From Victivallis vadensis (GTDB lineage Bacteria > Verrucomicrobiota > Lentisphaeria > Victivallales > Victivallaceae), in NCBI RefSeq assembly GCF_003096415.1, contig NZ_QEKH01000018.1, positions 56,002 to 120,001 of the forward strand: a stretch of DNA of 64,000 nucleotides. Direction: 5' to 3'. The translations under genes and the position numbers were made by a program. The number at the start of each line of letters is the position of its first letter. Position 1 is the first letter of the stretch. A model generated the notes under the pieces. That model made no database searches, had not been told where the DNA came from, and saw nothing but the letters and a program-made list of their open reading frames with translations. Shown piece by piece: positions 7,722 to 21,983 of the stretch.

Positions 7722-9437
7722 ATGCGGCGTTCCTGGAGTCAGGTCTACCTGCCGGTGGCGGCTGTCGCGGCGGTATTGCGGTGCTGGGCGGCGGTTGCAC
7801 TGGCCGGCTCTCCATTGCGGAATTTCCATCTGGTGCCCGGATTGGATATGCAGACGCTGCTGGAACGCGGCGAATGGGGGGCGACGGCCAGTCCGCTGTT
7901 CACGCTGCACCGGATGCTGGTCGCTTTTTTCTGGTCTGTCAACGGCCGGAGCCATCAGGTCATGCAACTGGCGGGCGTTCAGCTTGTGCTCGGCGTGGTT
8001 GCCGCGCTGCTGACCGCCTGGATCGTGCTGCATTTGTTCGGCAGCCGCCGGTATGCGCTTGCGGCCGGGATGGTCGCCGCGCTTTACGGGCCCGCCCTGA
8101 TGTACGAGTGCACGATGCTTCAGGAGAGCATGGTGACTTTCGCCTGTCTTGCCGCGGTGGTGTCGCTGATTCGGGCGCACCGTTTGCACTGGGGTGGCGG
8201 AGCCGCGTTGGCAAGCGGTGTCCTGTTCGGACTGGCTACGATCGGCCGGCCGACCGCGCTGCTGCTGGCGGGGGGGGCGGTGCTCTGGTTCTGGCTGGAG
8301 TTGAAGCGCCGGAACCGCCTGCGTCGCTGGTGGACTCTGCCGGGCGGCATTCTGGTGGTCTGGATTCTGATCGGCGGACTCAACTGGCATTACAGCCGTA
8401 ATTGGTCGCCTTTTTTCAACGTGCTGCCTTATTCGGCTTCGGTCAACACGGGCGGTGAGACGCCGTCGTCGGCCGTACCGGAGAGCAAGGCCGCTTTTGA
8501 ACTTCCGCCGCCGGTCCGGATCGGGGTCAATGCCGTGAAACGCCTGCCGGTGCTCTTCTGTGCTCACGAGGTGCCGGACAACCTCAATTATTATTTTATC
8601 CGCGAGATGTTTCCGCCGTTGCGGATGAGCTGCGGCCCGTGGCTGGTTCTGCCGCTGGCGGCGGCCGGGATGGTCCTGCTGCTGTTTTCCGGGCGGTGGA
8701 AAAGGCGCGACGGATTGCTGCTGGGGGTGATCCTGCTTTTGATGCTTCCGTTATGCGCGAATTATCCGATGGGGCGTTACCGTCTGCTGCTTTATCCGTA
8801 TTTGTCCATCCTGGCGGTTTATCCGGCTTGGTGGGCGTTGCGTTGCGGCCCCGAAGGCTGCCGGAAGCGGACGGTATGGATGCTGGCGGCGGTTGCCGGA
8901 AGCGCCGGGCTGAATCTGGCATTGAGCGAACGGCCGTTTGTGCGCGGCAGTGATTTTGTGGCATGGGCGATGGCGATGGAGGAAGGCGGCAAACGTGTTT
9001 CGGAAGCGTCGCTGCAAACCTTTGAGCAGGGGTTGGCGGAAAGCGGGTTTACGGAGCAGGCGGCGCTGGTGAACCTGATGGTGCGGCTGATCCCGGCCGG
9101 GCAGCTGGATCGGGCGGAAGGATTGCTGGCCAAGGCGTTTGAAGCGGGAGCGATCGAACCGGCGCTGCTGTGGTATTACGGAGGGCTGGTGAAGCTGGGG
9201 CAGGGGCGTTTTGACGCGGCGGCGGCGGCGCTGGAGCGGAGTGATCCGGCCCGGTTGGGAATCCTGGCATCGAAACGCAGCTTTTTCGAGGGGGAAGCGC
9301 GTCGCTTGAAAGGGGATAACGCGGGAGCGGCGCGTTGCTATCGGCGGGCGCTGACGGAGGAACCGCTTCCGTCTTTTCGGCCGCTGATCGAAGAGGCTCT
9401 GAAGAATTTGCCGGAAACAGGCCGCACGACCGAGTGA
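7722..9437 (+). CDS. GT39/PMT-like membrane glycosyltransferase with C-terminal repeat domain
   Basis: 571 residues. About ten hydrophobic segments fill residues 1-400 (for example VMQLAGVQLVLGVVAALLTAW, WWTLPGGILVVWILIGGL), with polar loops, the layout of ArnT/PMT-like lipid-linked sugar transferases. A loop resembling the family's first acidic motif is not clear, so function is inferred from topology. Residues about 430-571 are soluble and helical with TPR-like periodicity (VRLIPAGQLDRAEGLLAKAFE, GRFDAAAAALERS, GDNAGAARCYRRAL). GGAGGAAG precedes the ATG. It stands alone between rnpB and tmRNA. Confidence 0.65.
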   Translation: MRRSWSQVYLPVAAVAAVLRCWAAVALAGSPLRNFHLVPGLDMQTLLERGEWGATASPLFTLHRMLVAFFWSVNGRSHQVMQLAGVQLVLGVVAALLTAWIVLHLFGSRRYALAAGMVAALYGPALMYECTMLQESMVTFACLAAVVSLIRAHRLHWGGGAALASGVLFGLATIGRPTALLLAGGAVLWFWLELKRRNRLRRWWTLPGGILVVWILIGGLNWHYSRNWSPFFNVLPYSASVNTGGETPSSAVPESKAAFELPPPVRIGVNAVKRLPVLFCAHEVPDNLNYYFIREMFPPLRMSCGPWLVLPLAAAGMVLLLFSGRWKRRDGLLLGVILLLMLPLCANYPMGRYRLLLYPYLSILAVYPAWWALRCGPEGCRKRTVWMLAAVAGSAGLNLALSERPFVRGSDFVAWAMAMEEGGKRVSEASLQTFEQGLAESGFTEQAALVNLMVRLIPAGQLDRAEGLLAKAFEAGAIEPALLWYYGGLVKLGQGRFDAAAAALERSDPARLGILASKRSFFEGEARRLKGDNAGAARCYRRALTEEPLPSFRPLIEEALKNLPETGRTTE

Positions 9438-9453
9438 TTTGCCGGAATCGGGC

Positions 9454-9481
9454 TTGACATTTCGTGAAAAGATGATATAGT
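9454..9481 (+). promoter_or_regulatory. tmRNA promoter
   Basis: A consensus TTGACA box, 16 bases, and TATAGT; the -10 box ends 16 bases before the mature tmRNA 5' end. Confidence 0.7.
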
Positions 9482-9497
9482 GATAGTTACCGATTTT

Positions 9498-9854
9498 GGG
9501 GGTGTTCCGGATTCGACCGGCCCGGTTGGGTGTTGATTGCATGCCGAGGATGATCGTTGGCCTCGTAAAACATCGGTCGAAACGATAACTGCGAACGAAG
9601 AGTTTGCTCTGGCGGCTTAAGTCCCGCCACGCTGTCGTCCCTGAGGAGTGCTAGGGGATCATGGCGTCATTCAGCGCTCTGGCTTTGAACAATCGTCTTT
9701 CGGTTCAAGGCGAGATCAAAGGAAGGAATAGTCTGGAGTCAGGCCTGCTCATTGGCTTCGGCAAAGGACGATAAAAAGAAAAGATGAGATAAGCATGTAG
9801 ACGTCCTCATTGGACCTCGTCGGCACGCGGGTTCGACTCCCGCCACCTCCACCA
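9498..9854 (+). ncRNA. ssrA: Transfer-messenger RNA
   Basis: The 5' GGGGGTG pairs with CACCTCC next to the encoded ACCA end, giving a seven-pair acceptor stem, and GGTTCGACTCCCGCC is the T-arm. The tag frame runs 9591-9620 and reads ANEEFALAA followed by TAA, very close to the ANDENYALAA class, ending in the ALAA degron seen by ClpXP. tmRNA rescues stalled ribosomes. Its 3' end is a frequent integration site, and a lower-GC island starts just after it. Confidence 0.97.
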
Positions 9855-9867
9855 GTATTAAATGTAT

Positions 9868-9904
9868 GAGCATTAACGATTTACGTTAGTGCTCTTTTCT
9901 TTTA
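9868..9904 (+). terminator. Rho-independent terminator of tmRNA
   Basis: GAGCATTAACG pairs with CGTTAGTGCTC (one G-U pair) around a five-base loop, then TTTTCTTTT. Confidence 0.8.
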
Positions 9905-10212
9905 TATCCTATCTGTTTCAGCCTTAAAGTCTTACCGATAAACAGTTTTGCCACAGAGAATGTAAACTGGCGCTATTCCGGGTGTCAAACTGGGTTTTTC
10001 TGTCAAAAATCCTCTCTCTTTCTCTCCGGGTGGAGGACGGCGTCCTTTACCAGATTTGAGCTCAAAACAACCGTTTTTGACGTAAAAGACGGATTTTAAT
10101 GATGCGGTTTCGGAGAGAATACAATCACCTTGTCTTATATCAACAAAAAGTAATAAAACCCCGAAATTCCCTAAAAAATGTTGTTTTCACCTTACCGGAA
10201 GTGTCCGAACAG
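9905..10212. other. 308-base non-coding stretch at the island's left end
   Basis: No gene seen. AT-rich with a short AGGAC-GGC-GTCCT hairpin near 10034. It may contain the left junction of the island, but I see no repeat that marks it. Confidence 0.35.
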
Positions 10213-10250
10213 TAAAAAAGCCTCCAAGAGTAATTCCCGGAGGCTTTTCG
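10213..10250 (-). terminator. Terminator of the Xre/ImmA cassette
   Basis: On the minus strand GCCTCC and GGAGGC enclose a 13-base loop and are followed by TTTTTT. It sits directly after the stop of the last cassette gene. Confidence 0.75.
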
Positions 10251-10255
10251 TGTTT

Positions 10256-11230
10256 TTAAGCAGTCCTTCTCCGACTGCCCCAATGCTTATTACCGTAGGC
10301 GATCATCAATTCAAGATCGTGGGATGCGTCCCACATGGCCCGAATTTCCGGATGCTTACATTTCTCAAACTTGACTTTCAATTCCAACAGCGCTGAAACG
10401 CGCGGTTTGCTTTTTCCGATACGTTCTGCAAGGTACTCCTGCGTGATCGGCTTCAACAGCTGAGATCCGTTGCCCCGACTCAACTCGTGACAATAATGCC
10501 GGTACTGTGTTTCCAGATACTCATGCAGAGCTTTTTTCATAGCTCCGACAGTCGTCGCTGTTGCGTCACGTGTTTCGGGCTCCGGTTCCTCGTCAGGCCC
10601 ATCACAGGCCAGCTGGTGCAGCCATTCCATATCAAGCGCCCATTTGTCGTCCTGAATCATCAGGATCGTGTCCACTGAAACGATCCGGTTGTCATCATAC
10701 GGATTATCCGGGCTTTTGGAATAACGGCTGCTGCCAACGATCAATAAAGGAGTCTTTGTATCTGGCAGCTTGCTATATATGTCCTGCGGATCATCGTTCA
10801 GACGAGGCGTGAAATAAATATCCCGGCTACGGCCTGCAACAGGAACTCCAGACCGGCCCATCTTCCAAAGGCGACCGGGAATAATCATTTCAACATCTGC
10901 CCGGCATCGGAACAGCGAATGAAACAACTCCGCCACCTTTGCAGGCTGAAAAGTGTAGCCGATCAATTCTTCTTCTTTCACTTCTCTGGCTCCGCCGGTC
11001 AATGAACAGAACGCCATATATTTTGTTTTTCCGTCGCGCTCAAACTCCATGACATCTGCCTGGTGCAGTTGTTCGTCACAATCGCAGTCAACCGTTGTAT
11101 AGCGCTTGGTGGCCCGGAGGATTCCAGCTTTTTTCCACATTTCTGCTTCTCCGACAAGCTCCTTGCTCTGCCATTCCGGATCAGTCAAACACAAACGATC
11201 AGTCACCAGTTGAATAGCTCTTACGCACAT
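10256..11230 (-). CDS. Unrecognised protein with C-terminal HTH-like segment
   Basis: 324 residues; I know no family. An early CDCDEQLH segment followed by a later cysteine (YMAFC) could be a small metal site. The middle is acidic (CDGPDEEPEPETRD). Near the C-terminus ITQEYLAERIGKSKPRVSALL reads like a helix-turn-helix. The ATG at 11230 overlaps the end of the preceding gene by ten bases and has a GGGGGA ribosome site; a TTG 12 bases upstream is also possible. The overlap says that it works with the 390-residue protein upstream. Last gene before a terminator. Confidence 0.7.
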   Translation of the reverse strand: MCVRAIQLVTDRLCLTDPEWQSKELVGEAEMWKKAGILRATKRYTTVDCDCDEQLHQADVMEFERDGKTKYMAFCSLTGGAREVKEEELIGYTFQPAKVAELFHSLFRCRADVEMIIPGRLWKMGRSGVPVAGRSRDIYFTPRLNDDPQDIYSKLPDTKTPLLIVGSSRYSKSPDNPYDDNRIVSVDTILMIQDDKWALDMEWLHQLACDGPDEEPEPETRDATATTVGAMKKALHEYLETQYRHYCHELSRGNGSQLLKPITQEYLAERIGKSKPRVSALLELKVKFEKCKHPEIRAMWDASHDLELMIAYGNKHWGSRRRTA

Positions 11231-12393
11231 ACGATCCCCCAACTTTTCAGAGTTTCCATGATAACCAGCTGAACGCCGGGATCTTTGCTGTTAATGTTGC
11301 AGGAGTTCGGCCGGACTGTTACGGTCTGGCATTGTTTTCTGCCATACTTTTTCGGATCAAGCTGAAGGCGGAGCTTCACACAGGATATTTCCAGAATGGA
11401 CATCGGAACACGATCCGGGTTCAGCTCTTTGCGCATCTGAGTATAAAGGTCCAGATCGGATTCCTCATAAACGCGGCGGCTGCCTTTGTTACCGGCAATC
11501 CCGGCTTCAAGCATAAGCACCTTTGCTTCTCTAACGTCAGACAGCGGATCAACAATGATGTTATCAGGGCCTTTTTTGAATCCGGAAATATCAAATGCCT
11601 GCTTCTTCAAATCGGCATCTTGGATAATTGTGTCCCGCATTGTTTCGGCCCAGATCTGGCACAAACGCTCTTTGTGGGCGCGAGGTCCAGTGGTTCGAAC
11701 AGACAGGTGATTTTCCTTCCGATCATAAACTATGACGATTTCATAGGCGTGCTTGTCGATCCCGCGAGAGAAATCATTGCCGCCTTTCCACTGCATCGTA
11801 TTGCGGGGATAGTCGCTCAGGTAAAGGAAGAAGCACTCCTTATCCAGCGCGAGACGTTCAAAATACTCTATGAAGCAGTATTTGCCCCGGCCTTCCAAAT
11901 TATAAATGTACTCACTTATTCCCCGTTCAAGTCGATCAAAGTGTTCATCTTCGTACTCAACCTTTCCGGCTCCGCCATTAAAAAGTTTCTGGACAAACCA
12001 GAGGGACTCTGTCATTCGATCAATATGGGCAAATCTGGCAGCCTGAGTCCAGGCAGTTTCGTCTTGCAGAAATACCCATGCCGCTTTGTCATGGATACTC
12101 CACTCGTCGAATTCAGCAGGTGGAATAAGTCCCTGCTGGGCGATCAAACTATGCAGAGTTGTGGCATTGACTGGATGTTCTGCAAAAACAAAGATCTCGT
12201 ACAGAGCCGAATCAACCTTGCCCCGGAGATCGTCACTAAGTGTGAGGAACCGGGAATAAAGGTGATCAACATTCCGTACTTTGACTTTGGTCCAGTCAAT
12301 TTCAAGTTCAGGAGCGAGTTTTTCAAAGATGGCTTTCTGCATGACTTGTGACAGAGAACGAAAAGCCTTCTTGGTATTATACGTCGTACACAT
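11221..12393 (-). CDS. Unrecognised 390-residue protein of the Xre/ImmA cassette
   Basis: A soluble protein without signal or membrane segments; no family recognised. It is rich in aromatic residues, with stretches such as SLWFVQKLFNGGAGKVEYEDEHFDRLERGISEYIYNLE cut by charged loops, and a more beta-like middle (HAYEIVIVYDRKENHLSVRTTG). It overlaps the downstream gene by ten bases. A -35/-10 pair just upstream suggests that this gene pair can be transcribed apart from the regulator and protease before it. A defence or toxin role is possible but only from context. Confidence 0.7.
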   Translation of the reverse strand: MCTTYNTKKAFRSLSQVMQKAIFEKLAPELEIDWTKVKVRNVDHLYSRFLTLSDDLRGKVDSALYEIFVFAEHPVNATTLHSLIAQQGLIPPAEFDEWSIHDKAAWVFLQDETAWTQAARFAHIDRMTESLWFVQKLFNGGAGKVEYEDEHFDRLERGISEYIYNLEGRGKYCFIEYFERLALDKECFFLYLSDYPRNTMQWKGGNDFSRGIDKHAYEIVIVYDRKENHLSVRTTGPRAHKERLCQIWAETMRDTIIQDADLKKQAFDISGFKKGPDNIIVDPLSDVREAKVLMLEAGIAGNKGSRRVYEESDLDLYTQMRKELNPDRVPMSILEISCVKLRLQLDPKKYGRKQCQTVTVRPNSCNINSKDPGVQLVIMETLKSWGIVCA

Positions 12394-12421
12394 AGCTAAT
12401 GTCTACCTTTCGTTAATTGAG

Positions 12422-12449
12422 TGTTTAGTAAATAGTCAGCATTTGTCAA
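12422..12449 (-). promoter_or_regulatory. Possible internal promoter of the two unknown cassette genes
   Basis: Minus-strand TTGACA, 16 bases, TAAACA in the 94-base gap between the protease and the 390-residue gene. The -35 box is consensus, the -10 box weak. Confidence 0.4.
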
Positions 12450-12487
12450 CGTGGACATCCGAGCACGCTGGCACAAAATTGATGGGT

Positions 12488-13189
12488 TCAGAACAAACGA
12501 GGTTCTGGCTCGGCAAGCTCAAGGAGGCCCATATCACGAAGCCGGATCTGCATGGTTTGTGCAGACACCTTGAACTTGATAGCAAACTCCCTCGCCAAGT
12601 CGCAGCGGATGTTCTCCGGCTCAGTTTGGAAGCGCTCGCTCTTTTCGCGGATTTCCTCGTAGACGTTTTCCGGACCATGATCGGGACCGAATTTAGCCTC
12701 CCACTCCCGAAGGATTAAGTCCTTTGGCATGAGGATATAACCAGAAAACATATCCGCTTGCTTTTCTTTCGGCTCTTTGCAGCTGGTTCGGTAAACGGAG
12801 ACAGGTTTTAACTCATCGTCGAACAGGTTGTCAGTGTTCACACTGGCCAGCAAGTGCTGGTGCAAGATCCAGTGTCCTGTTTCATGACCGAGAGTGAATC
12901 GGTAACGTCCCTCTTTGTCTGCATTGAAATCCGGGTGAATTGTTTGGTCGATCAGGATGACTTTTCTGTTCCTGCCTACAAGAAATTCAGCCAGCACGTC
13001 GTCGTTTTGATACTTCGCCCGGAGATCCGCTGCTTCGATCGTCACGTCATAAAGGCAGTCAAGAATCTCCTCTATGGGAACGGGAGCAGTGATCGGTTCT
13101 TTATACTTCTGCGCGTAGGCAGCCAGAACCGACATGGCTTCATCTTCTATTTTTTGTGCGGGAATGTAGGAGGAATAGCCCATTGCCAT
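12488..13189 (-). CDS. ImmA/IrrE-family metallopeptidase
   Basis: 233 residues. LGHETGHWILHQH is the zinc-binding HExxH with its typical context, and KEKQADMFSGYILMP supplies the downstream acidic ligand segment of this family. Such proteases cleave the Xre-type repressor encoded next to them, relieving repression in response to DNA damage or other signals (ImmA of ICEBs1, IrrE of Deinococcus). The start ATG overlaps the repressor stop (TAATG), the usual pairing. The C-terminus (SAQTMQIRLRDMGLL) is the common winged-helix-like end. Confidence 0.88.
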   Translation of the reverse strand: MAMGYSSYIPAQKIEDEAMSVLAAYAQKYKEPITAPVPIEEILDCLYDVTIEAADLRAKYQNDDVLAEFLVGRNRKVILIDQTIHPDFNADKEGRYRFTLGHETGHWILHQHLLASVNTDNLFDDELKPVSVYRTSCKEPKEKQADMFSGYILMPKDLILREWEAKFGPDHGPENVYEEIREKSERFQTEPENIRCDLAREFAIKFKVSAQTMQIRLRDMGLLELAEPEPRLF

Positions 13190-13572
13190 TATTCCTTTTT
13201 TGCTTCTTCAGTCGCCTTCTTCTCAGCTTCCATAAAGCGCTGAAATTGTGCGAGTTGAGCTTCGGACATTCCACTGGCTGTACGCAGAAACGCTGCCATA
13301 GCCTTTGGCTTTTCCAGAATAATAGCATTGAGTGCGGGGTCCACCTTCTCGGCTAAACCCAACAGTTCGTCACGATTGATGTCGAGCAGATCTGCAATCC
13401 TTATGATTGTATCTGCTGCCGGGATCAACTCTCCAGCTTCTACCTTATTCAAATAGGTAGGGCTCAGGCTGAGCATTTCTGCGAACTTGCGCTGTGAAAA
13501 ACGCGGATCGCTCTGCTTTTTCACTTCTCGCAGTGCGCGGATTTTGTCGCCCAGGGCGTTACTCTCGGACAT
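13189..13572 (-). CDS. Xre-family transcriptional regulator
   Basis: 127 residues. An N-terminal HTH (residues about 8-70) includes FSQRKFAEMLSLSPTYLNKVEAGELIPAADTIIRIADLLDI; a helical tail follows. First gene of the minus-strand cassette, overlapping the ImmA/IrrE-type protease that is its probable antagonist. It is expected to repress its own operon and perhaps the divergent recombinase operon starting at 13.7 kb. Confidence 0.88.
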   Translation of the reverse strand: MSESNALGDKIRALREVKKQSDPRFSQRKFAEMLSLSPTYLNKVEAGELIPAADTIIRIADLLDINRDELLGLAEKVDPALNAIILEKPKAMAAFLRTASGMSEAQLAQFQRFMEAEKKATEEAKKE

Positions 13573-13595
13573 AATCGTTCCTTTCTATTGGTTTT

Positions 13596-13623
13596 ATTCT
13601 ACGGTGCTGATAATATATGACAA
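13596..13623 (-). promoter_or_regulatory. Promoter of the Xre/ImmA cassette
   Basis: Minus-strand TTGTCA, 16 bases, TAGAAT, ending 24 bases before the regulator's ATG. AAAGGA is the ribosome site. The gap to the divergent operon is short, so one operator could control both. Confidence 0.55.
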
Positions 13624-13734
13624 CTTGATGTGAATTACAAATCTTTTTTTGAAAAAAAATCAAAAATAATGGCACCAATTGGGACTTTTTTGGAAAGATA
13701 CTTGTTTGGAGACCTCAACAGAAGGAGCAACAAC

Positions 13735-13977
13735 ATGTCCCAAACAAAAAAAGACTTTACGGAAGCCATGCGAATAATTCAGAGAATATTTCGCAAAAGA
13801 CGAGAAAGTGAACTTGCTTTAGTTCAAAACCAGAGCAAATGTATGCACAAAGCAAACAATATCAACATCTTAACAAAGAAAGGATTTATAGATGAGACAA
13901 CAGACACCAACGAGTGTGACCCGTCAGTTAATGGAGCTGCAGAATATGGGAGTCCCTGCTTTGCAGGCCAGATTTGA
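13735..13977 (+). CDS. Possible small basic protein before the DUF2924 gene
   Basis: An 80-residue frame with a good ribosome site (GAAGGAG) before the ATG and a basic helical start (RIIQRIFRKRRESE). It overlaps the DUF2924 gene by 86 bases, and the overlapping tail looks unlike a natural protein. It may be a real gene that coupled into the next one, or a leader. Low certainty. Confidence 0.3.
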   Translation: MSQTKKDFTEAMRIIQRIFRKRRESELALVQNQSKCMHKANNINILTKKGFIDETTDTNECDPSVNGAAEYGSPCFAGQI

Positions 13978-14332
13978 AGAACTGTACGGCTTCCCGACAA
14001 CTCAGAAAAGAGTGGTAACATTGAGAAAACGCATTGCTTTCAGAATTCAGGAGCTTTATTATGGCGGATTGACAACAGCAGAAAAAGATATTCTCAATGA
14101 AGTCGCCTCAAACGATCCGCTGGCAAACCTGCAAAAGACGTCAAATAATGAATCCGTTTTGCTTCCGGGATCAAGATTGACAAGAACCTGGAAGGGCAAA
14201 GAGTACGAAGTAACCATCATGGACGATGGACGCTTTGAATATGAAGGCCGAATTTTTAGATCGCTTTCAGGAATAGCGTCCGAAATCACCGGATCGCACT
14301 GGAACGGTAAAGTTTTCTTTGGAGTAAAATAA
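13892..14332 (+). CDS. DUF2924-family protein, partner of the serine recombinase
   Basis: 146 residues. The start TSVTRQLMELQNMGVPALQARFEELYG and the later RIQELYYGG match DUF2924, a family nearly always encoded just before a serine recombinase of phage or plasmid origin. The C-terminal half (LTRTWKGKEYEVTIMDDGRFEYEGRIFRSLSGIASEITGSHWNG) is the conserved DUF2924 end. It ends two bases before the recombinase gene. Function unproven; a DNA-binding or directionality role is inferred from this constant pairing. Confidence 0.85.
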   Translation: MRQQTPTSVTRQLMELQNMGVPALQARFEELYGFPTTQKRVVTLRKRIAFRIQELYYGGLTTAEKDILNEVASNDPLANLQKTSNNESVLLPGSRLTRTWKGKEYEVTIMDDGRFEYEGRIFRSLSGIASEITGSHWNGKVFFGVK

Positions 14333-14334
14333 TT

Positions 14335-15396
14335 ATGGATAAATCACAAATAAAGCGATGTGCAATTTATACGCGTAAAAGTACCGATGAGAACCTTCAG
14401 GATTCTTTTAACAGTCTTGATGCGCAGCGGGAGGCGGCCGAAGCATATATCCAAAGCCAGAAAATGAATGGCTGGCGCTTGCTCCCGGATCGTTACGATG
14501 ATGGCGGTTATTCTGGCGGAAATATGAATCGACCTGGTTTGAAAAAACTTCTGGAAGATGTAAAAGCTGGTAAGATCGACATTATTATCGTTTATAAGTT
14601 GGATCGACTTTCACGATCCATCTGCGATTTTGCCGAATTGAGCAAGGTCTTTGATAAACATGGAACATCCTTCGTCAGTGTCACGCAGGAAATCAACACA
14701 ACCACAAGTTCCGGTCGAATGATGCTAAATATTCTGGTAACTTTTGCCCAATATGAGCGAGAGGTTATCGCAGAACGTATCCGCGATAAAATGTCCGCCA
14801 GCCGCAAAAAAGGCAAATGGGTTGGCGGTTCGGTTCCTCTGGGATATAAGGTGGTGGACAAGCATTTGCACATAAATGAAGAAGAAGTCAAAATTGTAAA
14901 GCGGATCTTTACGCGATTCCTGGAAATTGGTTCTCCGCGACAGATAGCTTTTGAACTGGAAGAATCTGGCGTGGCAAGACGCGATGGAAGGCCCTGGAAT
15001 GTAAGTCATATTTACCGGATTTTGCAAAATCATACCTATATCGGGAAAGTCAATTATAAAGGTGAGATTTACGAAGGTGAACACGAGGCTATCATTGACA
15101 AAAAGAGCTGGGATGAAGCCCAGGAGCATCTCAAAGAAAATGATCCTATGAAATATCTGCGAAACAAAAAGCAGGAGACCGTTGCAATCCTTAAAGGAGT
15201 TATTCGCTGCGGACATTGCGGATGTGCGATGGGGCCGACATACGCCAGGCGAAGAGGTCGGAAATATCTTTACTATCTTTGCGTCGATGAATCAAAGCGC
15301 GGAAAACATGTATGTCCAGTAAACCGAGTAGCTGCACCGGCCATTGAGGAGATCGTTTTGAAACTGAAACAGCGGCCTTTTTTAGAGGACTTTTGA
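14335..15396 (+). CDS. Serine recombinase, shortened at the C-terminus
   Basis: 353 residues. The catalytic domain has YTRKS with nucleophile S16, KLDRLSRS and the long E-helix (RMMLNILVTFAQYEREVIAERIRDK). A recombinase domain follows (GYKVV to HTYIGKVNYKG) and then the zinc ribbon (C292, C295, C316, C327). Large serine recombinases of this group run on for about 150-250 more residues with a coiled coil that controls synapsis; here the frame stops just after the ribbon at PAIEEIVLKLKQRPFLEDF. The missing part suggests either a compact variant or truncation at the border of the next element. Integration or excision of the island is the probable job. Confidence 0.85.
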   Translation: MDKSQIKRCAIYTRKSTDENLQDSFNSLDAQREAAEAYIQSQKMNGWRLLPDRYDDGGYSGGNMNRPGLKKLLEDVKAGKIDIIIVYKLDRLSRSICDFAELSKVFDKHGTSFVSVTQEINTTTSSGRMMLNILVTFAQYEREVIAERIRDKMSASRKKGKWVGGSVPLGYKVVDKHLHINEEEVKIVKRIFTRFLEIGSPRQIAFELEESGVARRDGRPWNVSHIYRILQNHTYIGKVNYKGEIYEGEHEAIIDKKSWDEAQEHLKENDPMKYLRNKKQETVAILKGVIRCGHCGCAMGPTYARRRGRKYLYYLCVDESKRGKHVCPVNRVAAPAIEEIVLKLKQRPFLEDF

Positions 15397-15442
15397 CATT
15401 AGGCGAACCAACGCTTATAAAAAGCTGGCGTCAATCTTCGGT

Positions 15443-15637
15443 AAAAAGTCCCCGTACATCGAAAAATCCGTAATTTCGAAGTTTATGACTTTTTCGGAAT
15501 TTGAACGGGTGTTGAACCATTGTCCCCATTTTACGAACTTTTGGCTGTTTTTGAGGGTGGGAGAATTTTGACTTTTTGTTTTGTTAACCTCCAGGAAATA
15601 AAACCCGGCGTTATTGAAACCAGAAAAATGACTTTTT
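15443..15637. repeat. Cluster of AAAAAGTC motifs, candidate element end
   Basis: AAAAAGTCCC stands at 15443-15452, and its complement TGACTTTTT occurs three times, at 15486, 15569 and 15629. GGGACTTTTT, the inverted match of the first copy, lies at 20453-20462 directly after the integrase stop codon. Several transposase-binding repeats at one end and fewer at the other is the pattern of DDE elements such as Tn7 or Mu. The motif is short and A/T-rich, so chance is possible. Confidence 0.35.
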
Positions 15638-15827
15638 AAGGTTGTAAAATGCGCGTTTTGGTGATATATTACGCTGTGACAGATAGAGCGTTATAAATAG
15701 AGAAAGGAGCAGCATCTGACATAATAAAAGCGTCTATTTTTAATACATACATTGTTGGATAATACCGACGACTAAATTTTCCTCCAAGTGAAATCGCCAA
15801 TTTTCTATTCGAGAGAGGGTAAAGTTT

Positions 15828-15851
15828 GTCGGGTCGTTTTTGCGACCCGGC
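15828..15851. other. GC-rich hairpin in AT-rich surroundings
   Basis: GTCGGGTCG pairs with CGACCCGGC (one G-T pair) around the loop TTTTTG. It is followed by CTTTTGC, so it could be a terminator, or a structured site near the element end. Confidence 0.4.
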
Positions 15852-15934
15852 CTTTTGCATCTCTCTGGCTTTGGCGAGCCTCACTTGGTACAATCGGTCG
15901 AGGTCGCTTTTTTATGCTTTTGCTTTGATATTAC

Positions 15935-16768
15935 ATGCTGAATAAACGAAGCGGGAAAAACTTTTTTAATACGCATATATCCAGCCTGCGATTTCTGATA
16001 ATTGCAGTTTCTCTTTTCGTTTCCATCGTCACGATCTCTGCAAAAGAGCCATTTGTTTATCGCCCGAAATATCCACAGTATGATAACCTTAAATATGGCG
16101 TTCCCGGTCCGGCTGATACCATTATTGAGCGCGAAGGTTATGCCCTGGGATATATCGAAAAACATGAACAGCCGAGCTGGGTTTGTTATATTGTCACAAA
16201 AGATGAACTTTCCAGTCGGGTTGCAAAACGCACAAATAACTTCCGGGAAGATCCCCTAATTCCGACTGGTTCCGCACATCCTTCCGACTATACCAGATCT
16301 GGCTTTGATCGCGGCCATTTGGCCCCGGCCGCCGATATGTCATTCTCACAGAAAACGATGAGCGACAGTTTTTTCATGAGCAATATGTCGCCCCAGAAGC
16401 CAGCTTTCAATCGCGGAATCTGGGGAAAGCTGGAAAAACAAATCCGGTATTTTGCAAACCGGGAAGGAATGATTGTTGTTGTCACCGGGCCGATCCTTCC
16501 GAAAACGCCAACTATTACGATTGGCCGAAACAAGGTTTCTGTTCCCGAATATTATTATAAGGTTGTATATGATCTCACGCCACCACAGAAAATGATCGGT
16601 TTTATTCTGCCCAACAAAGGCAGCTCCGAGGACCTTCTTTCCTTCGCTGTGACCGTCGATCATGTCGAAAAATTAACTGGACTGGATTTTTTCAGTCTGG
16701 TTCCAAAACAAAAACAGGAAAAACTGGAAAGCAGCATCTCCGTTGAGAGCTGGGATTGGATCAACTAA
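15935..16768 (+). CDS. Secreted DNA/RNA non-specific endonuclease
   Basis: 277 residues. A hydrophobic segment (LRFLIIAVSLFVSIVTISA, residues 18-36) gives export or membrane anchoring. The DRGH motif is present (D125-H128, FDRGHLAPAADM) with the metal-binding asparagine segment SNMSPQKPAFNRGIW, as in the NucA/EndA/Serratia nuclease family (beta-beta-alpha-metal fold). It should cut DNA or RNA outside the cytosol. No clear ribosome site precedes the ATG. A terminator follows it, so it is separate from the HTH-array operon. A secreted nuclease as cargo in a mobile element is unusual; it might cut competing DNA or feed uptake. Confidence 0.85.
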   Translation: MLNKRSGKNFFNTHISSLRFLIIAVSLFVSIVTISAKEPFVYRPKYPQYDNLKYGVPGPADTIIEREGYALGYIEKHEQPSWVCYIVTKDELSSRVAKRTNNFREDPLIPTGSAHPSDYTRSGFDRGHLAPAADMSFSQKTMSDSFFMSNMSPQKPAFNRGIWGKLEKQIRYFANREGMIVVVTGPILPKTPTITIGRNKVSVPEYYYKVVYDLTPPQKMIGFILPNKGSSEDLLSFAVTVDHVEKLTGLDFFSLVPKQKQEKLESSISVESWDWIN

Positions 16769-16797
16769 AACATACATATATATCGTTTGCGATAATG

Positions 16798-16834
16798 GCA
16801 CTGTGATAAACGGTCACAGTGCTTTTTTATTTTT
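16798..16834 (+). terminator. Terminator after the nuclease gene
   Basis: GCACTGTGA pairs perfectly with TCACAGTGC around TAAACGG, followed by TTTTTTATTTTT. Confidence 0.85.
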
Positions 16835-16887
16835 GACGGTTTTGAAAATCCCTTAACCTTAATATAAAAAACAAGAAAGGAACGTTT

Positions 16888-18717
16888 ATGGGAAAATCAA
16901 ACATTATTCACGACATTGAGGTGATTGCGGATCGCGTCTCAAAGCAGAACATCCGCAAACATCAAAACCTGATCCGGCTGGGCGAATGGGTAAAAGAGCT
17001 CCAGGAGGAAAACAAACTTCTCAAACAGCGCCTTTTTACGCTGGAACTGCGCGTCAAAAAACTCAATGACTATGGCGCGACACCGTTGACGCGGGCAGAA
17101 CAGGCTGCTGAACAACAGCGCCAGGAACAGCCGAAACAAAAGATCACCGGTGCTCACCTGAAGCGTTTTCGGTTGGGCAGATCGTTGAGCCAGGAAGCTA
17201 TGGGCTCTCTTTTCGATGCATCCGCACAGAAATATGCCCGTTGGGAAAGCGGTCGCTTTGCTCTGGCGCCTGCTGTTGAAGAACGATTCCGGGAAATTCA
17301 AAAGTGGCCCGCTACCAAACTTCGCACCGAATTACAGGAACGCGGGCATTTCCTGACGACCGGTAAAAAGACAAAAATGCCAAAACTGCCGGTACAAAAA
17401 GAACAACCGGAAGTGGTGGTTCAGCCTGCACCGGTCACAGAAACGCCGCAGGTTATTTCAAAAGAACAGATCCGGCAGTTACGGGAGGCCCTGGGATATA
17501 CGCGTCCGCAGCTCGCAGATCTTATCGGTTGTAAAAAGAGAACGCTTGCCAGCTGGGAAAACGGAGAACGAACTGCAAGAGGCGAATTTGCAGAAAAACT
17601 GCTGGATCTGTTCAAAAAACAATTCGCCGCCCAGCCGAAAGACCCGAAACTGGAGCAGCCTTCTTCCGTTAATCGTCAAAGCTCGACTCGTAAAATATAT
17701 GAATCACCCATTATGCCTGTTGCTAAAATCCGGGCCGGTCGTGCCGCCTCCGGAATGTCTGGCCGTGAAGTGGCAGAGGCTCTTGGCGTTCCTGTTACTA
17801 CATATAAAAATTGGGAATCAGGGAATTGCAGACCTTCTGACATATATATTGAAAAGATGCAGAGCCTTTTCGGGAGCTTCCCCACTGAGTCAGCAAGAGC
17901 TTCTGCTGAGATCGAAAAAACACCAATTTCACCGGATAAAATCACTTGCCAGCAGCTCCGCGACTTCCGTCATTCTATCGGTGTGACCAGATTGAAACTG
18001 GCAAACTATTTGCAGATCCCTCTGTCCCAATATCAGAATTGGGAACATCCGTCCCGGTGTGTTCCTTCCAGTTTCCAGGATAAGGTAAGGGAACTCATGA
18101 ATATGAATCCCGACGAAGCAAAACTTATGCTGGGAATAACAGAAGCAACTCCGCCGCCAGCACCCGCTGCCGAACCGGTTGTTGAAAAAACTAATGTTTC
18201 CAGACCCGCTATAACCTGTGACGATATACGGAAGTTCCGTTTGTATCTGGGGCTCAGCGGCCAGCAAATGGCGGACTTTTTGAAAGTTCCCCATTCCGTA
18301 TATAAAAATTGGGAAACTAAAAAACGGCGTGTCGGTGACGAGTTTTATGACCAGGTCGCTCCTATTTATAATGAAGATAAGCGCACTTTGAAAGGGATGG
18401 TATCTAAATTTCTGGGAGGTCGCAAACCGGGAGCCAGAAATCTGGGACCTCAAATTCAAACTAAACCCAATACTGACACAAGGATCTCTGGCGAAGAGAT
18501 GCGCCAGATTCGTCTGCGCTTCGGAATCCCGCAGATCCAAATGGCTGCCTTTTTGAAAGTCGACATGAGTTCTTACCAGCATTGGGAAATTAAAGGACGC
18601 TTTGTCCCTCAAAAATATGTAGACAGGGTGTTGGAAATATCCGATCTTTCCGTTGACGAATTTCAAAAGAGACTTTCTGCAGCCGGGATCGTTGCGCGGT
18701 CTGCTCGTCCATATTAA
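16888..18717 (+). CDS. Protein with six tandem Cro/Xre-like helix-turn-helix units
   Basis: 609 residues. Residues 1-60 form a likely coiled coil (WVKELQEENKLLKQRLFTLELRV). Six related HTH units follow, at about 85-145, 189-245, 274-330, 350-415, 440-505 and 531-596, joined by proline- and charge-rich linkers. Each fits the pattern hRxhRxxhGhoxxxhAxxLxVxxxxYxxWE with a tyrosine or leucine and an invariant WE in the recognition region; the presumed base-contacting positions differ (SAQK, KKRT, PVTT, PLSQ, PHSV, DMSS). No catalytic domain is seen. The ATG has AAGAAAGGAA before it. The next gene starts 12 bases after the stop, so it shares an operon with the split integrase pair. Inference: a modular DNA-binding protein recognising a long target or the element ends. 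Family unknown to me. Confidence 0.85.
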   Translation: MGKSNIIHDIEVIADRVSKQNIRKHQNLIRLGEWVKELQEENKLLKQRLFTLELRVKKLNDYGATPLTRAEQAAEQQRQEQPKQKITGAHLKRFRLGRSLSQEAMGSLFDASAQKYARWESGRFALAPAVEERFREIQKWPATKLRTELQERGHFLTTGKKTKMPKLPVQKEQPEVVVQPAPVTETPQVISKEQIRQLREALGYTRPQLADLIGCKKRTLASWENGERTARGEFAEKLLDLFKKQFAAQPKDPKLEQPSSVNRQSSTRKIYESPIMPVAKIRAGRAASGMSGREVAEALGVPVTTYKNWESGNCRPSDIYIEKMQSLFGSFPTESARASAEIEKTPISPDKITCQQLRDFRHSIGVTRLKLANYLQIPLSQYQNWEHPSRCVPSSFQDKVRELMNMNPDEAKLMLGITEATPPPAPAAEPVVEKTNVSRPAITCDDIRKFRLYLGLSGQQMADFLKVPHSVYKNWETKKRRVGDEFYDQVAPIYNEDKRTLKGMVSKFLGGRKPGARNLGPQIQTKPNTDTRISGEEMRQIRLRFGIPQIQMAAFLKVDMSSYQHWEIKGRFVPQKYVDRVLEISDLSVDEFQKRLSAAGIVARSARPY

Positions 18718-18729
18718 GGAAATCACATC

Positions 18730-19341
18730 ATGAAAAAAGAACCTTCTTTTTATATGGCTCTGCCGCTGACGGAGCGCGACAAACTCAGAGAAAAACAAAA
18801 ACTCAGCACCTACCGGGAGTATACCAGAAACCTGACCGGGCTGGATATAAACAAACAGATGGACGCTGAATCAGATTATTTGTTAAAGGAAAATCAGCTG
18901 TTATTCCGCCGCCTGACTAATGGTGATACTGAGCTGCTGGATATAACGCCACAGAACTTTCGCATATTGGGCCGCCTGGCTAAACGCTTGCCGGAGCGTT
19001 TCCGTTCTGACGTTACCATAATGAAATATGAAGATTTGATCCGGGGCTGTGAGCATTTTGAATCAAACCCGCCGCCGGTAAAATCAAATCAGATTCCTTT
19101 GGAAATTGAGCAACAGATCATTGATTTTGCCCTGGAAAATCCGACCTGGGGATCGCCACATATTTTATATGCCCTGCGAAATATCGGTAACTTCCAGCTG
19201 AAGGAGCATCACGTCAGACGGGTTCTGGTAAAAAATCACATTCCGATTTCCGCCGAGCGCGTCAAAAAGGGACTGCCCTGGAAAGCGTTTGTCGCAGCCA
19301 TGAAATCTGCAAACGGGCTGGGAGGCGTGATCTTCAAATGA
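18730..19341 (+). CDS. Integrase-like N-terminal half without catalytic domain
   Basis: 203 residues. A leucine-rich helix (DYLLKENQLLFRRL) is followed by VTIMKYEDLIRGCEHF and then by a winged-helix-like part (IIDFALENPTWGSPHILYALRNIGNF, VRRVLVKNHIPISAERVKKGLPWKAFVAAM). The order and wording parallel residues 40-185 of the integrase encoded next (EYLHMENMILRG, SPAQIIRFSKK, SIVEEHPRWTKHEVWEEMQKYF, RGLPWKDFLKRF), and both parallel the front of rve transposases of IS481/IS3 type. It stops where the catalytic core should begin. It overlaps the integrase gene by four bases (ATGA), so a paired function is likely, for example binding ends or target without cutting. Confidence 0.75.
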   Translation: MKKEPSFYMALPLTERDKLREKQKLSTYREYTRNLTGLDINKQMDAESDYLLKENQLLFRRLTNGDTELLDITPQNFRILGRLAKRLPERFRSDVTIMKYEDLIRGCEHFESNPPPVKSNQIPLEIEQQIIDFALENPTWGSPHILYALRNIGNFQLKEHHVRRVLVKNHIPISAERVKKGLPWKAFVAAMKSANGLGGVIFK

Positions 19342-20453
19342 CAAAACGCTCAAACAGCAAATTGCGGAAGAATCCCTATGCGTCCCTTCATCGGAAGCTC
19401 ATTGAGTTTACCGAAAATGCTGAACTCGACGAAGAATTGACATTACGGAATGAATATCTACACATGGAAAATATGATTCTGCGCGGGATGTATTTCAAGC
19501 GGAAAGATCGCCTGAAGCTGACGGAGGCAGAAAAACAGGAGCTTGCGGTTCCGGCAGCGAAGATGCGGGGACGATCCAAAGTGAAAGTTTCGTTGCTTTC
19601 CCCGGCGCAGATCATTCGCTTTTCAAAAAAGGCTTCGGGCAAAAAGTATGTGAGCCTTTTCCCGAAAAAGAGAAGTGCTCCCCGTATTTCCACAGTATAT
19701 AAAGGCGACATTCTGCGCAGTATCGTCGAGGAGCATCCCCGCTGGACAAAACATGAGGTCTGGGAGGAAATGCAAAAATATTTCCCAGACATCCCGGCGT
19801 TCCAGGTTTACGACCTGCTTTATGACATCGGGCATTGGGATGCAAAGAAGATTGTTCGCGGACTGCCCTGGAAAGATTTTTTGAAGCGATTTGAAAAAGT
19901 AACCTGGGCCGGTGACTTCTTTTCAACAGACGTATGGACCGACTACGGACAATGGACCTATTTTACTTTATTTTTCATTCATCTGGAAACGCAGCGGGTA
20001 TTTCTGGCCGGAACGACCAGGCATTGTACTTCTCAATGGATCATTAACACTATAAAATGGTGGACTGACGGCGAGAGTCCTTTCGGGCCAGATGCCAGAT
20101 TTTTGATCCGGGATCGGGACACCCGATATACAGCGGAGGTTGATTGGTACTTTGCGCAGGTGGGGTTAATGCCGAAGATTATTTCTCCCGGCGCTCCGGT
20201 AATGAACTTTCACGCGGAGCAGTTTGTTAGGAAGATCAAACATGAGTGCCTTTCGCATTGCCTGTTTTTAAGTGGTGATGCGCTCCGGAATGTTCTGGAT
20301 ATGTATGTAAAATATTACAATACCCAGCGGCCAAATACAAGGTTTAATGGCGGCTGTATCCTGGAAGATGAGACCCATTGGCAGACGGAAGGAGAAATCA
20401 GGCAAATAACAACGCTTCCTGGCTTATTGAACTATTATTACCGTTCAAAGTAG
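19338..20453 (+). CDS. DDE integrase/transposase (rve core)
   Basis: 371 residues. The N-terminal half (1-185) carries the leucine-rich helix and winged-helix parts also found in the preceding gene. The RNase-H-fold core has D193 in WAGDFFSTDVW, D259 in FLIRDRDTRYT and E294 in FHAEQFVRKIKHECL, a DDE set with 34 residues between the second D and E. The end YYNTQRPNTRF is the usual rve finish. It is expected to cut and join the ends of the element. It is one operon with the six-HTH protein and the core-less paralogue. Stop TAG is followed at once by GGGACTTTTT, a candidate end motif. Confidence 0.88.
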   Translation: MTKRSNSKLRKNPYASLHRKLIEFTENAELDEELTLRNEYLHMENMILRGMYFKRKDRLKLTEAEKQELAVPAAKMRGRSKVKVSLLSPAQIIRFSKKASGKKYVSLFPKKRSAPRISTVYKGDILRSIVEEHPRWTKHEVWEEMQKYFPDIPAFQVYDLLYDIGHWDAKKIVRGLPWKDFLKRFEKVTWAGDFFSTDVWTDYGQWTYFTLFFIHLETQRVFLAGTTRHCTSQWIINTIKWWTDGESPFGPDARFLIRDRDTRYTAEVDWYFAQVGLMPKIISPGAPVMNFHAEQFVRKIKHECLSHCLFLSGDALRNVLDMYVKYYNTQRPNTRFNGGCILEDETHWQTEGEIRQITTLPGLLNYYYRSK

Positions 20454-20462
20454 GGACTTTTT

Positions 20463-20744
20463 CTGCTGTTTATATGACAGACCGGAAACAAAAACTGATA
20501 ACAAATGGCAGGGAATTTATATTTCTTTTGAAAAACAGAGATTTTGAGTTCCCTTGTCTCTTTTATTGGTAAAAAGGTTCCAAAATCCCCTGTAAACCAA
20601 GTCCATAACTCATTGTTTTTTAAGCAGAAAACGTCTCTTATAGGAAGCGTTTTTCTGGGGCTCTAATGCTCCAGGAATAATTTTATCATTTTTGCTGCAG
20701 AGAACAGAATCGGGTACTTCCGGAATGGGATAATGTGGTATTGA
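20463..20744. other. Island right margin, no gene
   Basis: 282 AT-rich bases between the integrase and cinA. No gene, tRNA or repeat of the tmRNA end recognised. Base composition returns to the core type near 20690-20745. The right junction of the island should be in this stretch. Confidence 0.4.
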
Positions 20745-21983
20745 TCAGAATGTGGAAGGTTCCAGCAATTCCCGGAGCATCGCGAATGCGTGCTCGATTG
20801 TCCGTTCCCGGATGGCGCGGCGGTCGCCGTTGAAACGGAATTCCCGCACCTGTTCGGCTTCCCCGAGTTTGGCTCCGATATAGACGAGGCCGACCGGTTT
20901 GGCTTCGGTGCCGCCTCCCGGACCGGCGATGCCGGTTACCGCGATGGCGCAGTCGGCTTCCAGGCAGGAAACCGCTCCCCGGATCATCGCTTCGGCGCAC
21001 TCCCGGCTGACGGCGCCGTGTTCGGCCAGCAATTCCTCAGGAACTCCGAGCAGCCGGTGCTTCAGTTCGTTGCTGTAGACCACGACTCCGCCTTTGAACA
21101 CCTCCGAAACTCCCGGCAGGTCGGTCAGGCGGCCGGCGATCAGGCCGCCGGTACAGGATTCGGCTGTGACCAGTTGCAAATGGCTTTGTCCCAGCAGTTT
21201 GACCACGTAATCGGCCATCTCCAGCTCTCCGACCGGAAGAGCGGCGGGCGAGAGCAGCGCGTGGGCGCGTTCGGCGGCGGCTTCAACCCGGCCGCGGTCC
21301 GCCCCGGAGAAAAAGACACGGGTCCCGGCGGGGCGGGCACAGTAGGCCAGTTCGATTTCAAACTCTTTCAAAGCCTTTTCCAACTGCTGCTGAATCGTGA
21401 ATTCTCCGACGCCGGAGACCAGAAAGCCGAGCGTGTATTCGCGGTCAGTGGTACTTTGGCTCTTGAGCAGCGGGATCAGGGCCTGACGGACCATCGGTTC
21501 AAGTTCGCGGGGCGGGCCGGGCAGCAGCACCACCAGCCGTTCGCGCCGGTCGTATACGGTTCGGAATGCGATGCCGCCAGCGGAGCCGTTCGGATTGTCC
21601 AGCACCACGGAATCGGCCGGACGCCGGGCCTGTTTCAGCACCAGTCCGGGAACCCGGCCCGTGTGGCGCCTGTGCCAGAAGGCCGTCACCTTTTCCTCCA
21701 GCACCGGATCGCTTTCCAGTTCCAGGCCGAAGAAACGGGCGGCGGCGTCAAGGCTCAGGTCGTCCCGCGTGGGGCCGAGTCCGCCGGTGATCACGATGAT
21801 GTCGGCCAGTTTGAGCGCGTCACTCAGGGCCGCGTAAAGTTCGCGCGGATGGTCGCCGATCGTGAAATCCGCGATCACCTGCAGACCGGCGGAGGCCAGC
21901 TCCCGGCCGATGAATGCGCTGTTGGTGTTGACGACCGAACCTTTCAGGAGTTCGGTTCCGGTGGAAATCAGGGCAATACTCAT
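20745..21983 (-). CDS. cinA: CinA: competence/damage-inducible protein, nicotinamide-nucleotide amidase
   Basis: 412 residues from the ATG at 21983. The N-terminal molybdopterin-binding-like domain (1-170) has STGTELLKG, NTNSAFIGREL and VITGGLGPTRDDLS. The C-terminal domain (from about 260) carries the NMN-deamidase motifs AESCTGGLIAGRLTDLPG, SNELKHRLLGV and VTGIAGPGGGTEAKPVG. The protein recycles pyridine nucleotides by hydrolysing NMN amide. Starts two bases after glxK's stop; last gene of the minus-strand operon from 26.3 kb. Confidence 0.95.
   Translation of the reverse strand: MSIALISTGTELLKGSVVNTNSAFIGRELASAGLQVIADFTIGDHPRELYAALSDALKLADIIVITGGLGPTRDDLSLDAAARFFGLELESDPVLEEKVTAFWHRRHTGRVPGLVLKQARRPADSVVLDNPNGSAGGIAFRTVYDRRERLVVLLPGPPRELEPMVRQALIPLLKSQSTTDREYTLGFLVSGVGEFTIQQQLEKALKEFEIELAYCARPAGTRVFFSGADRGRVEAAAERAHALLSPAALPVGELEMADYVVKLLGQSHLQLVTAESCTGGLIAGRLTDLPGVSEVFKGGVVVYSNELKHRLLGVPEELLAEHGAVSRECAEAMIRGAVSCLEADCAIAVTGIAGPGGGTEAKPVGLVYIGAKLGEAEQVREFRFNGDRRAIRERTIEHAFAMLRELLEPSTF

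What the first reader, a model, noticed from the sequence alone, without database searches (positions are those of the whole stretch)
16888..20453. Operon of a six-HTH array protein with a split integrase pair
One transcript encodes a 609-residue protein with six tandem Cro/Xre-like HTH units, a 203-residue protein that looks like an integrase front half without catalytic core, and a 371-residue DDE integrase. Spacings are 12 bases and a four-base overlap. The HTH units share a scaffold (WE after the recognition helix) but differ at the positions that normally read bases. I know no described transposition system with this set. A hypothesis: the array reads a long target or the element ends while the two integrase-like proteins form a mixed complex.
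Basis: partly seen in the sequence, partly recalled or inferred. Interest (0 to 1): 0.95.

Follow-up and report, generated by a model that had tools for sequence, protein, structure and literature searches.

The report
Integrase paired with a DNA-reading array
Some bacteria of one order carry a three-gene unit that joins a predicted integrase and a catalytically empty relative of its own front half to a protein built from a variable string of predicted DNA-binding blocks; the string likely tells the integrase where to act, which would be a new way of aiming DNA insertion.

Summary
At 16888-20453 lie a 609-aa protein with six Cro-like HTH units, a 203-aa protein and a 371-aa DDE integrase (INT), tightly coupled. 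The 203-aa protein is a homologue of INT residues 12-192 and ends where the catalytic core begins. The set is conserved: 6 of 137 genomes of the order hold an array (E<=1e-15), the same six hold full-length 203 next to it, and no free array was found. Fused 203-INT proteins exist. Arrays have 1, 3, 4, 5, 6 or 7 units. In the window's lineage the last unit has been duplicated, and its predicted base-reading positions are its most variable columns; units 1-3 show no such excess. 203 and INT are under purifying selection and nearly identical between hosts of two families whose cinA shares 39%. No element ends, target duplication or empty site was found, so mobility and targeting stay inferred. 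Closest known: IS3/IS481-type transposases and IS911 OrfA; my paper searches found no system with an HTH array. The nuclease gene upstream is not specific to the set, but is preceded by a structured RNA absent from Rfam.

The parts
16888..18717 (+). array protein, 609 aa: N-terminal predicted coiled coil (about residues 1-63) and six Cro-like HTH units
17143..17307 (+). HTH unit 1 (residues 86-140), corresponds to rank 1 of four-unit arrays
17455..17619 (+). HTH unit 2 (190-244), corresponds to rank 2
17713..17877 (+). HTH unit 3 (276-330), corresponds to rank 3
17941..18105 (+). HTH unit 4 (352-406), tail type (rank 4)
18211..18375 (+). HTH unit 5 (442-496), tail type
18484..18648 (+). HTH unit 6 (533-587), tail type
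18730..19341 (+). 203-aa core-less homologue of the integrase front half
19338..20453 (+). INT, 371-aa DDE integrase; catalytic codons D193 (19914), D259 (20112), E294 (20217)
16797..16823 (+). terminator-like hairpin that separates the nuclease gene from the array operon
20652..20677 (+). candidate terminator after INT
15935..16768 (+). neighbour, probably not part of the set: DNA/RNA non-specific endonuclease (PF01223); also upstream of the array in L002

Best explanation
The three genes are likely a DNA-integration module in which INT would do the cutting and joining, the 203-aa protein would fill DNA-binding but non-catalytic places in the same complex, and the array would bring that complex to a chosen DNA site. 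Shown: the gene set, its linkage, the intact catalytic triad, the homology of 203 to the INT front half, natural 203-INT fusions, and arrays that grow and shrink by whole HTH units. Inferred: that INT is active, that 203 and INT assemble together on element ends (as IS911 OrfA and OrfAB share an end-binding front half), and that the array is the site reader. I commit to target reading: the N-terminal coil and first units would be the common part that docks or reads a constant sequence, and the duplicating, diversifying tail units would read the variable target. The module likely moves as, or within, larger islands, because it is found in single copy without terminal repeats beside the genes.
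For: Linkage 6 of 6 genomes with an array, order-wide. Five pairs of INT/203/array clusters share the exact length and source of their longest contig, which suggests more linkage. D193/D259/E294 invariant 25 of 25; INT model matches DDE enzymes, best IstA 8b4h E 2.3e-7, though the model is poor (pLDDT 65.6). 203 homologous to INT 12-192 (hhalign probability 95, E 3.8e-8; reciprocal HMM hits). Fusions in 12 of 12 long proteins examined (11 database proteins of the 12 found, plus L087). Trio-type INT forms one side of a 100/100 branch against 17 single-gene INTs. Tail-unit contact columns 27-29 have entropy 2.51 against a unit mean of 1.10 (P 0.0012), units 1-3 no excess. Window units 4-6 all resemble rank 4. 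99% aa identity of 203 and 95.8% DNA identity over 1592 nt between G034 and G414, whose cinA share 39%. dN/dS 0.035 for 203 (202 codons) and 0.054 for INT (247 codons).
Against: No inverted or direct repeat beside the genes exceeds shuffles, and no empty site or target duplication was found. One copy per genome examined; no multi-copy genome. No experiment or binding site. Two loci lie among defence genes, so a defence role is possible. The contact columns rest on 434-repressor numbering recalled from memory. The column test used 15 of 28 four-unit arrays (13 near-copies dropped), related rows and eight comparisons. The near-identity across families rests on metagenome bins, which can be mis-sorted.
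Confidence: 0.42

Rival explanations
1. The array is the operon's own repressor: a multi-HTH Cro/CI-like regulator that keeps integrase expression low, with the string of units reading a long operator.
For: It is the first gene of the operon and its units are Cro/CI-type. A promoter region of about 64 bases lies between the terminator-like hairpin and the array start.
Against: A simple repressor does not need 4-7 units or two array genes in one operon (L060). No operator-like repeats stood out upstream. Tail diversification at contact columns is unexpected for an autorepressor unless operators change in step.
Confidence: 0.22
2. The array reads the element's own ends (sub-terminal repeats) and helps assemble the transpososome, not the target.
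For: Long sub-terminal binding arrays are known in large transposons (recalled: Tn7, Mu). Tail changes could follow changes of the ends.
Against: No repeated motif clusters were found at either side of the genes. 203 and INT already carry the front half that in IS911 binds the ends.
Confidence: 0.2
3. A domesticated system, for example a defence system, in which the integrase acts on foreign DNA recognised by the array.
For: L085 lies between a SinI-type restriction system and a NucC/CD-NTase pair; the INT remnant of L065 lies near a BglI-type system and a Ymh protein. Single copies under purifying selection.
Against: 203, INT and the nuclease have no PADLOC match, and array matches are only single-HTH hits. 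Defence islands collect mobile genes. The flanks of L061 and L059 do not look like defence genes to the eye (not scanned).
Confidence: 0.13

Closest known systems
IS3 family, IS911 OrfA/OrfAB (PMC2909936, passages seen)
   Same: DDE transposase with an HTH and coiled-coil front half; a second protein that consists of the front half only and regulates transposition. A reference in its list names OrfA as a target-specificity switch (title seen only).
   Different: In IS911 OrfA is the same reading frame, made without the frameshift; here 203 is a separate, diverged gene or is fused before the full integrase. No HTH array in IS911. INT scores 43.2 bits against the IS3 cut-off of 160.
IS481 family transposases
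   Same: Best NCBIfam match of INT (49.6 bits) and of 203 (24.5 bits).
   Different: Far below the cut-off of 224 bits; extra genes; no terminal repeats found.
IS21 IstA/IstB, Mu A/B and Tn7 TnsABCD (recalled; IstA by fold match)
   Same: DDE enzyme plus dedicated partner proteins; target choice by a partner.
   Different: No AAA+ ATPase among the three genes; a string of plain HTH units instead.
Cro/CI-like repressors (HTH_3)
   Same: Fold family of each unit.
   Different: Up to seven units in one chain, operon-linked to an integrase, no match in phage or plasmid records.

Membership tests
IS481 family | curated NCBIfam score (224 bits) | tested here: not met
   INT 49.6 bits, 203 24.5 bits
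IS481 family | DDE triad with about 34 residues between second D and E | tested here: met
   D193, D259, E294 invariant in 25 of 25
IS481/IS3 families | terminal inverted repeats close to the transposase genes | tested here: not met
   no repeat better than shuffles beside the genes in window, L060, L085; ends farther away not excluded
IS3 family | curated NCBIfam score (160 bits) | tested here: not met
   43.2 bits
IS3 family | OrfAB made by programmed frameshift from orfA into orfB | tested here: not met
   203 and INT each have a full front half; INT has its own start
Tn7/Mu/IS21-like systems | AAA+ ATPase partner | tested here: not met
   no such domain in the three proteins; farther genes of the island were only partly scanned
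phage or plasmid repressor family | relatives in phages or plasmids, free of the integrase | tested here: not met
   no array match in phages, plasmids or viral contigs; no free array in 137 genomes at E<=1e-15. Array passes three NCBIfam HTH cut-offs (e.g. VC1465 75 against 70), which sum over several units
known anti-phage defence systems (PADLOC) | match to a system-specific protein | tested here: not met
   203, INT: none; array: HTH part of RmrA and others only
DDE transposon in general | movement with target-site duplication | tested here: inconclusive
   no empty site found

The most novel reading that the evidence does not exclude
A protein-programmed integration system: a chain of HTH units that evolves by adding, losing and re-specifying units works as an evolvable address label, comparable in logic to TALE repeats or guide RNAs, and hands the chosen site to a DDE integrase whose complex is half made of catalytically empty 203 subunits.
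Probability: 0.2. Interest if true: 0.92.

Novelty: new variant of a known kind. Interest (0 to 1): 0.72.

Why it matters
If the array sets the target, nature has used strings of ordinary HTH units as an evolvable DNA address for a transposase, without RNA or an AAA+ ATPase. The series of natural arrays with 1 to 7 units is a ready experiment on how HTH chains read long sites. The 203 protein, found both as a separate gene and fused, makes the question of mixed catalytic and non-catalytic subunits in a transpososome directly testable.

Tried and rejected
Terminal repeats: searched beside the genes in the window, L060 and L085 and among four 3' flanks; no inverted or direct repeat beat the best shuffle. 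The best word shared by the four 3' flanks reached, but did not beat, the best of 100 mononucleotide shuffles and is T-rich; the repeat finder over 9400-21000 gave only short chance-like pairs. A 13-of-16 inverted match near both island edges was within shuffles.

Empty site: in 6 of 6 congeners that have both, cinA and tmRNA lie on different contigs, so no clean empty site; the congener of L085's host lacks the flanking gene used. Short contigs are not circular by end overlap (8 tested).

Nuclease as part of the unit: rejected. It occurs in 59 of 137 genomes, and none of 17 fetched nuclease stretches holds an array, a full 203 or a trio-type INT (one, L150, has a distant single-gene INT beside it).

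Viral origin: INT and array found nothing in viral contigs and phages; 203 was not searched in phages. One viral contig has a 203 relative.

Fold of 203: no significant match; the top three were Pax paired domains at E 0.7-1, not used as evidence.

Dropped rows: 13 of 28 four-unit arrays as near-copies; P0045 left out of the tree.

Full report
What is there. The three ORFs lie exactly where the finding says. The array has six HTH units that match HTH_3 and relatives. INT is a DDE integrase by Pfam (rve_3, E 1.1e-10), with a weak but real kinship to IS481 (49.6 bits, cut-off 224) and IS3 (43.2, cut-off 160). Its triad D193, D259, E294 is invariant in 25 of 25 aligned relatives; which aspartates are catalytic is my reading from IS3-type motifs. 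The AlphaFold model is of low confidence (pLDDT 65.6); its best matches in the PDB are IstA, Mos1 and retroviral integrases (134 at E<=0.001, best E 2.3e-7). No solved structure matches by sequence.

The 203-aa protein. HMMs of 203 and INT find each other's front halves. Profile comparison aligns 203 to INT residues 12-192 (probability 95, E 3.8e-8), so it stops just before the first catalytic residue. It is a core-less homologue, not a broken gene: between L002 and L059 it has 28 synonymous and 4 non-synonymous changes over 202 codons (dN/dS 0.035), and INT 26 and 6 over 247 codons (0.054). Twelve proteins of 568-618 aa were found with INT. The eleven put into the tree, and the one in L087, all have an INT-like front half, then a full INT (12 of 12). 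Parsimony needs two changes between fused and separate; well-supported branches force one.

Linkage. Across 137 genomes of the order, an array at E<=1e-15 occurs in six (G000, G021, G034, G412, G414, G417). Full-length 203 (E<=2.2e-58) occurs in the same six, contiguous with the array. Five more genomes matched the 203 profile more weakly (E 1e-22 to 1e-16), through the front half of single-gene INT-like proteins. INT follows in all six, cut by the contig end in G034, fused in G412. The class search of 197 genomes added none at E<=1e-20. The phylum search used INT only and 387 sampled genomes. Two further genomes have only a piece of trio-type INT: G016, cut by a contig end, and G114, a remnant. 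Own genome: one INT copy. In the protein tables, five pairs of INT/203/array clusters share the exact length and source of their longest contig, which suggests further linked loci I could not fetch. L002 (sheep-colon MAG, Lentisphaeria) has the length and mirrored genes of G414's contig (L086), so the window's order lies in Lentisphaeria (inference).

The array. Forty array proteins (34 database proteins, six from loci; P0089 equals the window's) have 3 units (1), 4 (28), 5 (6), 6 (4) or 7 (1). L060 has two array genes in a row, and L162 a 166-aa array with one unit. L059 keeps only the last unit; its match to L002 begins at the start of that unit. Window units 1, 2 and 3 resemble ranks 1, 2 and 3 of four-unit arrays (mean identity 0.51, 0.43, 0.60), and units 4, 5 and 6 all resemble rank 4 (0.39, 0.36, 0.36). 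In P0094 units 4 and 5 both resemble rank 4. So the tail was duplicated. In 15 of 28 four-unit arrays (13 near-copies dropped), columns 27-29, which by recalled 434-repressor numbering begin the recognition helix, have entropy 2.51 in unit 4 (unit mean 1.10; P 0.0012 by drawing columns), and 1.30, 0.23 and 1.01 in units 1-3 (P 0.11, 0.90, 0.50). The test ignores relatedness of rows and eight comparisons were made. More distant arrays (L085, L087, L060) do not map clearly to these ranks, so the constant-head, variable-tail pattern is shown for the window's lineage only.

Mobility and setting. L002 and L059 share 95.8% DNA identity over 1592 bases and 99% identity of 203, while the cinA proteins of the two hosts, from different families, share 39% over 404 residues. 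This points to recent transfer, unless a contig is mis-binned. The window's set lies at the right edge of a low-GC stretch (0.41-0.50 against mostly 0.55-0.70) that runs from the tmRNA gene (9498-9854) to the cinA stop (20745) and also holds a serine recombinase, DUF2924 and ImmA/Xre-like genes. L085 lies between a SinI-type restriction-modification system plus NUDIX and a NucC/CD-NTase pair; the INT remnant of L065 lies near a BglI-type system. No ends were found.

How it most likely works. A catalytic DDE enzyme with a conserved triad, a core-less partner that is sometimes fused to it, and a strictly linked DNA-binding array fit an integration complex with a separate reader. IS911 is the nearest model: OrfAB truncated before its catalytic domain still binds the ends, and OrfA regulates transposition (PMC2909936, passages seen). 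I give it 0.42.

Novelty. Nine paper searches (listings, and passages of one paper) showed no system with an HTH array and a core-less integrase homologue. The library lacks most subscription papers, so this is not proof.

Noticed in passing
window 15785-15913 (+), upstream of the nuclease gene 15935-16768: Structured non-coding RNA candidate: fold z-score -5.4; found in 8 distinct loci upstream of the same nuclease type, 7 of 21 predicted pairs with two-sided compensatory changes, no Rfam match in the window or in five loci. 6 of the 17 fetched nuclease stretches have it. The nuclease genes stand alone in differing surroundings and several are broken: perhaps a separate RNA-plus-nuclease cassette.
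   Followed up: partly
L162 1347-3958 (viral contig, 6368 bases): A one-unit array gene, then a 203 gene that breaks off near codon 113 before a tyrosine-integrase element: the element seems to have inserted in the 203 gene.
   Followed up: partly
L064 7971-9475 and L150 5879-8021: Distant single-gene INTs directly beside nuclease genes of the same type as in the window; the cause of this repeated neighbourhood is unknown.
   Followed up: no
L085 5841-15097: Defence cluster: DNA cytosine methylase, SinI-type endonuclease (one of two similar genes scanned), NUDIX, then the trio, then NucC-like effector and CD-NTase.
   Followed up: partly
window 14335-15396: Serine recombinase of 353 aa with Resolvase, Recombinase and zinc-ribbon domains; shorter than CcrB (542), so possibly truncated.
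   Followed up: no
window 9498-9854: tmRNA gene; the low-GC island begins at its 3' end, a common attachment site.
   Followed up: partly
window 10256-12393 (-): Two proteins of 328 and 390 aa at the left of the island without a PADLOC match; the 390-aa one also without Pfam match, the 328-aa one not scanned with Pfam.
   Followed up: no
L059 1348-2691: The last array unit follows a WYL-like gene (my reading); the join is exactly at the start of that unit. Could be natural recombination or a chimeric contig.
   Followed up: partly
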